Assembly: GCA_945280365.1 (NCBI GenBank)
Contig: CALYQD010000005.1
Coordinates: 84,571-148,570 of the forward strand
Source of the DNA: an uncultured Apibacter sp.
GTDB taxonomy: Bacteria; Bacteroidota; Bacteroidia; Flavobacteriales; Weeksellaceae
DNA length: 64,000 nt
Direction: 5' to 3'
Shown here: positions 18,118 through 19,684 of the stretch, piece by piece
How positions within the stretch are numbered: position 1 is the first letter of the stretch
Layout of the letters: each line of letters begins with the position of its first letter
Made by a program: the position numbers and the translations under genes
Notes under the pieces: model-generated
Told to the model about the DNA's origin: nothing
Seen by the model: the letters and a program-made list of their open reading frames with translations, nothing else
Database searches by the model: none

Positions 18118-18408
18118 CTATATTTTTTCTTTCCTTTTGAGTATCATCTTTTTAACAGCTTCGCAAGCTAAATCAATGCTTTCTTCGAATGAGCTGGATG
18201 TTTTTTTGGCTACTAATTCATCTCCCGGAACTTCTAATATAATTTCTGTAGTCTTATTTTCTTTATTTCCAACATTTTCCAGTTTCAAGAATATATTAGC
18301 ATTAATGATTTTGTCATAATATTGATCTAATTTTAGAACTTTTTTATTTAAAAAAGCTAATAGAGTATCTTGTGCATTAAAGTTTACTGCTTGAACATTA
18401 ATTTTCAT
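18118..18408 (-). CDS. hpf: ribosome hibernation promoting factor, short form
   Basis: A 96-residue protein when started at MKINVQAVNF (18408). The pattern (V-N-F-N-A-Q-D-T-L-L-A-F-L, I-N-A-N-I-F-L-K-L, E-I-I-L-E-V-P-G-D-E-L-V-A-K, S-F-E-E-S-I-D-L-A) is that of the RaiA/HPF fold that binds the decoding site of idle 30S subunits. The long-HPF C-terminal dimerisation domain is absent. The gene overlaps the end of xerC by 11 bp, so it is translationally coupled to it, an arrangement common in Flavobacteriia. Confidence 0.88.
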   Translation of the reverse strand: MKINVQAVNFNAQDTLLAFLNKKVLKLDQYYDKIINANIFLKLENVGNKENKTTEIILEVPGDELVAKKTSSSFEESIDLACEAVKKMILKRKEKI

Positions 18409-19318
18409 TTTTTTTATTTTTATGCCCAAATGGATGGGACTGATTAAATACTTTTTTTAAATCTTCTATATTGTTGTGTGTATAAACTTGGGTTGCTGCT
18501 AAACTGCTATGTCCCAATATTTCCTTAATTGAGTTTATTTCTGCCCCATTGTGCAATAGATGGCTTGCAAAGGTATGGCGTAGCATATGAGGACTTTTTT
18601 TGTGTTTGGTAGTTGCGGTAGTTAGATAGTTGTGTATAAGGTTATATATATACTTTTCACTCAGAATTTTACCGGTTTCATTTGTAAATAAATATTCATA
18701 AGGTATACCAAACTTGTTTTTATAGGCTATAAATTGCCTTATCTTTTCGGTTAAGTCTTGGGTAATAGGTATAAGTCTTTCTTTGTTTCTTTTTCCAGTT
18801 ACAATTATAGATTTATTGGTTAAATCTATTTTTGAGGTTTTGAGTTGCAAAAGTTCCATCCTTCTGATGCCAGTTTGGTAAAAGATTTCAAAGATGAGAT
18901 GATTTCTAATTGTTTTAAAATGATCTTGATTCTTATTTTCTTCTTCACTAGTATTTATATATTTTTCTACTGAATAGATTTCTTCTTCTGTGTAGGGAAC
19001 TAAAACTTTTTTCTTTTGTTTTAAGTTTTGCAAAGAATGAGTTGGATTTATTTCAAGATAACCGATCTTAAGTAAAAATTTAAAAAAGCTTCTTATGGAT
19101 GAAATTTTTCTATTGATTGACCTTTCGGATAATTTTTTATGAGATAAATGTATGATGAAATTTCTTAATTGTTTAGCGGTAGCTTGATCAATTTCAGAAA
19201 TACTTTCTGTTTCTGAAAAGAATTGTTTAAGATCAAGCAGATCTCTTTCATAGCTTTGTATGGTTAAGGGAGAATACTGTTTCTCTAAATGAAGATATTC
19301 AAGAAATTTTTGTAACAT
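18398..19318 (-). CDS. xerC: tyrosine recombinase XerC/XerD
   Basis: A 306-residue site-specific recombinase: N-terminal SAM-like core-binding domain (about 1-90) and a catalytic domain with a complete active site, R152, K176, H244, R247, H270 and nucleophile Y279. Length and the H-x-L-R-H-T-F-A-S-H-L motif fit the chromosome-dimer resolvases rather than element integrases. It is embedded in housekeeping genes, between rpsU and hpf. Its ATG directly abuts the T-tract of the rpsU terminator, so expression must come from read-through or from the promoter-like box inside that hairpin. Confidence 0.92.
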   Translation of the reverse strand: MLQKFLEYLHLEKQYSPLTIQSYERDLLDLKQFFSETESISEIDQATAKQLRNFIIHLSHKKLSERSINRKISSIRSFFKFLLKIGYLEINPTHSLQNLKQKKKVLVPYTEEEIYSVEKYINTSEEENKNQDHFKTIRNHLIFEIFYQTGIRRMELLQLKTSKIDLTNKSIIVTGKRNKERLIPITQDLTEKIRQFIAYKNKFGIPYEYLFTNETGKILSEKYIYNLIHNYLTTATTKHKKSPHMLRHTFASHLLHNGAEINSIKEILGHSSLAATQVYTHNNIEDLKKVFNQSHPFGHKNKKNEN

Positions 19319-19366
19319 AAAAAAAGCCTACTTTTCAAAATTAAAAATAATTTTAAAAAATAGGCT
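19319..19366 (-). terminator. intrinsic terminator after rpsU, touching the xerC start
   Basis: On the minus strand an 18-bp stem (AGCCTATTTTTTAAAATT with AATTTTGAAAAGTAGGCT, two T-G pairs), a 6-nt loop, and a T-run that ends exactly at the xerC ATG (19318). It starts 22 bp beyond the rpsU stop. Confidence 0.85.
19336..19343 (-). promoter_or_regulatory. possible xerC -7 box inside the rpsU terminator
   Basis: TAATTTTG in the descending arm of the terminator hairpin fits TAnnTTTG and would start transcription about 11 nt before the xerC ATG. No TTG lies 19 bp upstream, so support is partial. Confidence 0.35.
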
Positions 19367-19388: not shown

Positions 19389-19583
19389 TTATGCTTCTTC
19401 TTGACTTTGCAATCTTTGTTTGTAAGCTGCTCTAATAACCTGTTGTCTTTTAGTAACAGAAGGTTTTATAAACTGTTGCCTTTTTCTTAATTCTTTAACA
19501 ACACCTGTTTTGTCGTATTTTCTTTTATATTTTTTTAGAGCTTTATCAATAGACTCTCCATCTTTTACAGGAATGATTAACAT
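19389..19583 (-). CDS. rpsU: 30S ribosomal protein S21
   Basis: A 64-residue basic protein: M-L-I-I-P-V-K-D-G-E-S-I-D-K-A-L-K-K-Y-K-R-K, then the F-I-K-P-S basic helix, typical of bS21 in Bacteroidota. In Flavobacterium johnsoniae bS21 with bS18 and bS6 is known to cover the anti-Shine-Dalgarno of 16S rRNA, and its own mRNA keeps a strong SD. Here GAGATG lies 5 nt before the ATG, a candidate for a variant SD. It has a full promoter (19624-19653) and its own terminator, so it is mainly a monocistronic unit. Confidence 0.96.
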   Translation of the reverse strand: MLIIPVKDGESIDKALKKYKRKYDKTGVVKELRKRQQFIKPSVTKRQQVIRAAYKQRLQSQEEA

Positions 19584-19588
19584 AATAA

Positions 19589-19594
19589 CATCTC
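19589..19594 (-). promoter_or_regulatory. candidate variant Shine-Dalgarno of rpsU (GAGATG)
   Basis: Minus-strand GAGATG preceded by an A-run, 5 nt from the rpsU ATG. Other genes of this window have plain A/T leaders at this place. It would pair with CAUCUC in 16S rRNA rather than the canonical CCUCC; 16S is not in the window. Confidence 0.5.
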
Positions 19595-19623
19595 TTTTTT
19601 GTTCTTCATTTATTTTCGAAGTG

Positions 19624-19653
19624 CAAATATATGAAGATAATTTGCAAACGCAA
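19624..19653 (-). promoter_or_regulatory. rpsU promoter (TTG - 19 bp - TATATTTG)
   Basis: TTG at 19653-19651, exactly 19 bp, then TATATTTG at 19631-19624 followed by CA. The predicted start of transcription gives a leader of about 34 nt containing the GAGATG motif. Confidence 0.85.
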
Positions 19654-19666
19654 ATTTATTTTTTAT

Positions 19667-19684
19667 AAATGAGAAATCTCATTT
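19667..19684. promoter_or_regulatory. 18-bp palindrome between divergent rpsU and glyS
   Basis: AAATGAGA-AA-TCTCATTT, arms of 8 bp around a 2-bp centre. Its right part AAATCTCATTT (19674-19684) recurs exactly at 19747-19757, just before the glyS -7 box. The palindrome lies 14 bp upstream of the rpsU -33 box. Candidate operator pair; no regulator is known. Confidence 0.4.

What the first reader, a model, noticed from the sequence alone, without database searches (positions are those of the whole stretch)
19584..19600. GAGATG in Shine-Dalgarno position before rpsU: sign of an altered anti-SD and bS21 autocontrol
Seen: minus-strand AAAAAAGAGATG, 5 nt, ATG of rpsU. Other genes here have featureless A/T leaders. 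Known: in Flavobacterium johnsoniae bS21, bS18 and bS6 hide the anti-SD, rpsU keeps a strong SD, and some Flavobacteriia have a changed anti-SD with a matching change before rpsU. Inference: this genome belongs to that subset, with CAUCUC at its 16S 3' end, and GAGATG is the covarying SD through which bS21 limits its own synthesis.
Basis: partly seen in the sequence, partly recalled or inferred. Interest (0 to 1): 0.7.

Follow-up and report, generated by a model that had tools for sequence, protein, structure and literature searches.

The report
Single-gene ribosome code of Apibacter rpsU
In a bacterium of the genus Apibacter, the gene for ribosomal protein bS21 carries, just before its start, a 14-letter stretch that is a perfect partner of an unusual 16S rRNA tail (UCUCU in place of the usual CCUCC) read in its close relatives, and through this match the protein likely limits its own production; tail and gene leader differ in step elsewhere in the family too.

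Summary
On the minus strand AAAAAAGAGATGTT (19600-19587) lies 3 nt before the ATG of rpsU; GAGATG itself is 5 nt before it. The window's genome (an Apibacter, Weeksellaceae) has no 16S in its assembly, but the 5 of 9 same-genus genomes with a 16S end GGAA[C/T]ATCTCTTTTTTAG, core UCUCU. The rpsU leader is the exact 14-nt complement in 4 of these 5. rpsU pairs best of 58 window ORFs and of 631 ORFs sampled from a complete relative; AGAGATG 3-9 nt before an ATG stands before no other credible gene of the window's genome.

The principle is published for Chryseobacterium-like bacteria with core UCUCA. This genus differs at the last base (U1539), and its rpsU leader differs at the matching base. Over 68 Weeksellaceae leaders none carries the wrong partner; 12 lack the element. 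Two genera whose AGAGATG leaders were read first proved to have UCUCU tails. So: a new variant of a known kind, with a third core state, matched differences, and losses that the published wording excludes. Autocontrol by bS21 is inferred by homology, not tested.

The parts
19587..19600 (-). Extended Shine-Dalgarno element AAAAAAGAGATGTT, exact complement of the 16S tail AACATCTCTTTTTT of the same genus
   Evidence: Sequence; tails in G001, G002, G004, G005; 14-nt perfect complement and -13.9 kcal/mol in these four
19589..19594 (-).
   Evidence: 1 of 58 window ORF leaders, 2 of 631 sampled ORF leaders of G005
19389..19583 (-). rpsU, ribosomal protein bS21, 64 aa, with Tyr at position 54
   Evidence: PDB 7jil chain z E 1.2e-22 with Tyr aligned to Tyr
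19577..19591 (-). AUG inside the SD element; it opens a 4-codon frame (ATG TTA TTA TGT TAA) that overlaps the rpsU start
   Evidence: Sequence. Meaning not tested
19624..19654 (-). Promoter-like TTTG-N19-TATATTTG (Bacteroidota -33/-7 type; consensus recalled, not from a call), which would give a short leader of about 35-45 nt
   Evidence: Sequence; the sigma-70 scan does not cover this type
19325..19366 (-). Terminator-like hairpin between rpsU and the next gene, followed by a T-run
   Evidence: 1 found, mean 0.1 in shuffles
18398..19318 (-). XerC/D-like tyrosine recombinase (family name recalled), downstream neighbour of rpsU
   Evidence: 83% identical to the copy of Apibacter mensalis

Best explanation
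AAAAAAGAGATGTT before rpsU is very likely an extended Shine-Dalgarno element, for it exactly matches the altered 16S tail (core UCUCU) read in other Apibacter genomes, and through it ribosomes that lack bS21 are predicted to translate rpsU preferentially, so that bS21 likely limits its own synthesis. Shown: the match, its rarity at other starts, the altered tail in all five same-genus genomes with a 16S gene, and the matched differences of tail and leader across the family. Inferred from work in F. johnsoniae (PMC9976891): bS21, bS18 and bS6 hold the rRNA tail in a pocket; a 30S lacking bS21 has a free tail, pairs with rpsU mRNA and makes more bS21, which then closes the pocket again. Inferred too: that the window's own 16S has the same tail, and that the helix runs from about A1531 to U1544, the six A of the leader facing U1539-U1544.
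For: Tails of 5 of 5 same-genus genomes with 16S are GGAA[C/T]ATCTCTTTTTTAG. Leader complement of 14 nt in 4 of these 5; the own 24-nt leader equals those of G002 and G005, whose bS21 is 100% identical. rpsU pairs best of 58 (-13.9, next -8.1 kcal/mol) and best of 631 ORFs (-13.9, next -10.7); with the tail written backwards as control the best values are -6.8 and -9.1, neither of them rpsU. Family-wide: of 61 leaders whose genus has a known tail, 39 TGAGATG with UCUCA, 10 AGAGATG with UCUCU, 0 crosswise, 12 without element. Genera g18 and g29: AGAGATG leaders seen, UCUCU tails found. Cross pairing costs 3.0-3.6 kcal/mol. In the family of L038's genome (its kinship to f1 is not told) 28 of 29 genomes with a 16S-like tail have CCUCC; two Olleya leaders have GGAGG, and the one Olleya tail read is CCUCC. 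bS21 keeps Tyr54, whose change to Ala raised rpsU reporter output 3-fold in F. johnsoniae (PMC9976891, passage).
Against: No 16S in the own assembly. No expression data. One relative, G003, has the altered tail (with a further C1533U) but no element (best pairing -1.6 kcal/mol), so the genus can live without it; 12 of 68 family leaders lack it, all 12 in genomes whose own tail was read and is altered. The bare pattern AGAGATGN{3,9}ATG is not rare in the genome (39 against 25 in the control). The mature 16S 3' end is not known here. The duplex energies come from a 12-nt tail without the ribosome.
Confidence: 0.85

Rival explanations
1. The element is an ordinary constitutive Shine-Dalgarno sequence that simply gives rpsU high translation, without feedback from bS21.
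For: The sequence evidence (match and covariation) speaks for pairing but says nothing about regulation.
Against: In F. johnsoniae the tail is held in a pocket in complete ribosomes, which still translate rpsU but less, and rpsU output rises when bS21 is lacking or changed (PMC9976891, passages). In the genes looked at here only rpsU bears the element; rpsR and rpsF do not, and one other of 631 sampled ORFs has AGAGATG, at a longer distance.
Confidence: 0.1
2. The AUG inside the element is used: a minimal upstream frame (AUG-UAA in most leaders read, 4 codons in Apibacter) controls rpsU by stalling or reinitiation, and the match to the rRNA is secondary.
For: All 56 leaders with GAGATG have an AUG there whose frame closes at once (47) or after 4 codons (9); in 44 of 56 it is in frame with rpsU.
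Against: The AUG is the necessary complement of C1533-A1534-U1535. The base that covaries with the tail (opposite 1539) lies outside the AUG and would be free under this reading. A-rich leaders give UAA easily.
Confidence: 0.04
3. GAGATG before rpsU is a chance purine run or a protein-binding site, unrelated to the rRNA.
For: None found beyond the absence of experiments and the modest enrichment of the bare pattern.
Against: 14-nt complement, 0 crosswise cases in 49 leaders with element and known genus tail, first place of 631 ORFs.
Confidence: 0.01

Closest known systems
rpsU extended SD with alternative ASD 5'-UCUCA-3' of Chryseobacteria and relatives (Jha et al. 2021, not held; known here through passages of PMC9976891 and PMC8710568)
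   Same: Same family Weeksellaceae, same gene, same C1535U change, full complement before rpsU, rpsU the outlier among genes
   Different: Core UCUCU: position 1539 is U, not A, and the leader has A instead of U opposite it; the passages read name UCUCA only, and PMC9976891 says that in all such organisms the full complement is seen before rpsU, which does not hold for 12 of 68 leaders here
bS21 autoregulation of Flavobacterium johnsoniae (PMC9976891, abstract and passages)
   Same: Strong extended SD at rpsU with pairing energy beyond -13 kcal/mol; bS21 with Tyr54; other genes SD-less
   Different: Canonical CCUCC tail there; here an A/U-rich helix that reaches -13.9 by length (14 pairs)
16S 3' ends that lack CCUCC (PMC6107228, one passage; PMC10783764, two passages)
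   Same: They list Chryseobacterium, Elizabethkingia, Riemerella, Weeksella among organisms without the canonical anti-SD
   Different: PMC6107228 reports no variant anti-SD perfectly complementary to a variant SD (a motif test over genes, as I understand it); here one gene has exactly that

Membership tests
Alternative ASD with covarying rpsU SD (Weeksellaceae type) | 16S core 1535-1539 altered from CCUCC | tested here: met
   5 of 5 same-genus genomes with 16S; own genome has no 16S, so met by relatives only
Alternative ASD with covarying rpsU SD (Weeksellaceae type) | Core is UCUCA as published | tested here: not met
   UCUCU in the genus; UCUCA in 50 and UCUCU in 13 of 63 family genomes whose tail was read
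Alternative ASD with covarying rpsU SD (Weeksellaceae type) | Fully complementary sequence before rpsU | tested here: met
   14-nt complement in 4 of 5 same-genus genomes with 16S; own leader identical to two of them; missing in G003
bS21 autoregulation by extended SD | rpsU stands out with the strongest pairing, beyond -13 kcal/mol | tested here: met
   -13.9, first of 58 and first of 631 sampled ORFs; a sample, not the whole genome; other program than the paper's, which ranks ribosomal protein genes
bS21 autoregulation by extended SD | bS21 with Tyr54 in the C-terminal part | tested here: met
bS21 autoregulation by extended SD | bS18 and bS6 form the pocket with bS21 | tested here: inconclusive
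   rpsF and rpsR genes are present and look alike to those of Olleya; single contact residues were not checked
bS21 autoregulation by extended SD | 16S tail hidden in complete ribosomes, rpsU raised when bS21 is short | not testable with these tools
   Needs ribosomes or reporters
Weeksellaceae with altered ASD | prfB frameshift site absent | not tested
   Reported for the Weeksellaceae analysed in PMC8710568 (passage); prfB was not looked at here

The most novel reading that the evidence does not exclude
The 16S tail and the rpsU leader form a private code for one gene, a natural orthogonal ribosome channel, that is free to drift because no other gene reads it: base 1539 has moved from C to A or U and switched between A and U more than once, and wherever the rpsU leader element was kept it moved along; where the element was lost (Empedobacter-like genera, Moheibacter, one Apibacter) the tail is left without a reader.
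Probability: 0.5. Interest if true: 0.65.

Novelty: new variant of a known kind. Interest (0 to 1): 0.52.

Why it matters
The anti-SD is among the most conserved stretches of any rRNA. Here it differs within one family, and the one gene predicted to read it differs in step. A further base of covariation (1539) strengthens the case that pairing at rpsU happens in living cells, and gives sets of related genomes with matched, differing and lost elements. That turns the questions what keeps the anti-SD conserved, and whether bS21 control is needed, into something that can be tested by comparison.

Tried and rejected
Own 16S: none found with the Rfam model or a tail pattern; taken from relatives instead. 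rpsR/rpsF as further targets: no element seen by eye (rpsR leaders printed for 8 of the 20 genomes, rpsF for 20). Leader folding: z -0.94, nothing special. A CCUCU core predicted from GAGGTG leaders of eight Flavobacteriales MAGs (L038, L042, L044-L049): no 16S tail was found in those MAGs, and 28 of 29 genomes with a 16S-like tail in the family of L038's genome are CCUCC, so the prediction is unsupported, though not tested in that very lineage. Direction of change at 1539: 16S alone does not reject one clade of UCUCU (p 0.18) or of UCUCA (p 0.14); 16S plus rpsF/rpsR/rplI (filled in 17, 13 and 8 of 17 rows) gives p 0.034 and 0.026, groups named after a tree was seen, so repeated switching is likely but not firm. 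One search stopped on an indexing slip of mine and was repeated; the printed core column is shifted by one base, its energies and complements are not affected.

Rows dropped and blind spots: 3 pattern hits and 8 were not 16S ends and were left out of the counts. 2 of the 70 genomes had no rpsU match (G013, G021). The pattern asks for TTT at a fixed place and cannot see an end like ACACCTCCTTTCTAG, so its 32 tails cannot show absence of CCUCC; the patterns can. Many genomes gave no tail (264 of 296, 19 of 40, 7 of 22). Tails were assigned by genus; for g29 leader and tail come from different genomes.

Full report
What is there. The minus strand reads AAAAAAGAGATG-TTATT-ATG, the ATG being the start of a 64-aa ORF at 19389-19583. 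The ORF is bS21: its best solved relative is chain 7jil_z, ribosomal protein S21, E 1.2e-22, and its Tyr54 lines up with a Tyr there. The gene is followed by a terminator-like hairpin and a tyrosine recombinase gene that is 83% identical to that of Apibacter mensalis.

Which organism. The window lies in G000, a 45-contig assembly of 2.57 Mb. Its genus g1 has nine genomes here, the own one included. G002 of that genus has its 16S tails at the same contig places as the assembly that holds the Apibacter mensalis locus L029, so g1 holds Apibacter mensalis; NCBI places Apibacter in Weeksellaceae. By the same kind of match G061 is Moheibacter sediminis and G108 is Algoriella xinjiangensis.

The 16S tail. 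The own assembly has no 16S. Five of the nine genomes of the genus have one. Eleven copies were read in these five: ten have GGCTGGAACATCTCTTTTTTAGAG, the one of G003 has GGCTGGAATATCTCTTTTTTAGAG. In E. coli numbering (recalled, consistent with the table in PMC8710568) this is C1535U and C1539U: core UCUCU in place of CCUCC. The leader AAAAAAGAGATGTT is the exact complement of AACAUCUCUUUUUU. According to the legend of Figure 2 in PMC9976891 (passage) the F. johnsoniae tail runs from A1534 to U1544; by homology the six A of this leader would face U1539-U1544. That the helix really has this extent is inference.

Rarity. Among 58 window ORFs (60 aa or more, first ATG) rpsU pairs best with the tail, -13.9 kcal/mol against -8.1 for the next; among 631 ORFs from 38 stretches of 20 kb of the complete genome G005 it is again first, -13.9 against -10.7. 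With the canonical tail rpsU is not among the six best in either set; with the tail written backwards the best values are -6.8 and -9.1, and rpsU (-5.7) is fourth in the window. AGAGATGN{3,9}ATG occurs at 39 places in the own genome and 38 in G005, against 25 and 16 for the reversed control. I read the open frames around all 39 own places: rpsU alone stands before a credible gene start, the others lie inside longer open frames or open only short ones (no annotation was used). rpsR and rpsF leaders, read by eye, lack the element.

Covariation in the family. Tails were read in 63 distinct Weeksellaceae genomes (32 of 296 searched, 21 of 40, 15 of 22; five occur twice): 50 UCUCA, 13 UCUCU, none CCUCC; the pattern could not have shown a Flavobacterium-type CCUCC end, those could. 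UCUCU is found in g1 (Apibacter), g10 (Moheibacter), g18 and g29. rpsU leaders were read in 68 of 70 genomes, 31 genera. Of the 61 whose genus has a known tail, 39 have TGAGATG with UCUCA, 10 have AGAGATG with UCUCU, none is crosswise, and 12 have no element. Seven more have TGAGATG in genera without a tail read. For g18 and g29 the AGAGATG leaders were seen first and the UCUCU tails afterwards; I had not written the prediction into the notebook beforehand. A wrong partner at 1539 costs 3.0-3.6 kcal/mol, and matched pairs lie at -11.9 to -13.9 kcal/mol, all but G037 beyond the -13 that PMC9976891 gives as typical of rpsU (abstract). In the family of L038's genome, 28 of 29 genomes with a 16S-like end are CCUCC; G352 has an odd AATATATCTTTTC. 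Two Olleya leaders have GGAGG.

Losses. G003 (same genus) has the tail AATATCTC and a leader without match (-1.6 kcal/mol). Genera g21 and g28 (nine genomes; Algoriella is one) have AAATAGATA-type leaders with UCUCA tails read in the same genomes; the named loci of Empedobacter, Chishuiella, Faecalibacter and Algoriella (L030, L032, L034-L037, L039, L040) have the same type of leader. G015 (g8) has none; the two Moheibacter-genus leaders read have a weak one (-6.3). [quoted passage not shown] with the genomes here that is too strong.

History. 16S alone leaves the order of these groups open. With three ribosomal protein genes added, a single clade of UCUCU is disfavoured (p 0.034), and so is a single clade of UCUCA (p 0.026); gaps are large and groups were named late. 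Matched switching between A and U at 1539 more than once is thus likely, not shown.

How it most likely works. In F. johnsoniae bS21, bS18 and bS6 hold the 16S tail, ribosomes without bS21 translate rpsU better, and the effect needs extensive pairing (PMC9976891, abstract and passages). By homology, Apibacter rpsU would be read preferentially by ribosomes short of bS21, with the altered tail as the key and the altered leader as the lock. The pairing is strongly supported by covariation; the feedback is inferred.

Literature. The library gave no paper with Apibacter and Shine-Dalgarno, none with the whole word UCUCU plus Shine-Dalgarno plus 16S rRNA, one with Weeksellaceae and Shine-Dalgarno (PMC8710568). 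It holds only open-licence papers, and Jha et al. 2021 and all supplements were not read, so the UCUCU state may be recorded there.

An oddity. C1533-A1534-U1535 forces an AUG into every matching leader. In 47 of 56 leaders with the element this AUG is followed at once by UAA, in 9 (8 of genus g1, and G037) by a 4-codon frame; in 44 of 56 it is in frame with rpsU. Pairing with the rRNA would cover this decoy start. Whether the stop is selected or comes from A-rich leaders was not tested.

Noticed in passing
window 19577-19591 (-) and 56 family leaders: The altered tail forces an AUG into the SD element; its frame is closed at once by UAA in 47 of 56 leaders and after 4 codons in 9.
   Followed up: partly
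L038, L042, L044-L049, leader of rpsU: Eight Flavobacteriales MAGs have AAAGAGGTGT leaders; the two leader parts tested would fit a CCUCU tail better (-15.5 to -15.7) than CCUCC (-11.7). No 16S tail was found in these MAGs.
   Followed up: partly
G003 (same genus): L007 leader and L014 16S tail: A same-genus relative has lost the rpsU element and has a further C1533U in its 16S tail.
   Followed up: partly
G352:C39:2845-2871: A 1.6-Mb genome in the family of L038's genome has a 16S-like end GGCTGGAATATATCTTTTC, core AUCUU, unlike its 28 CCUCC relatives.
   Followed up: no
window 19667-19684: Perfect 8-nt inverted repeat AAATGAGA-TT-TCTCATTT upstream of the rpsU promoter region; the part of it visible in the leaders printed is not shared by G002 and G005.
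   Followed up: no
window 19325-19366 (-): Terminator-like hairpin whose T-run ends just before the start of the recombinase gene.
   Followed up: no
G001:C24:157112-157811 and C37:106388-107087: Partial 16S pieces (about model positions 9-707) beside full copies in G001, perhaps assembly fragments.
   Followed up: no
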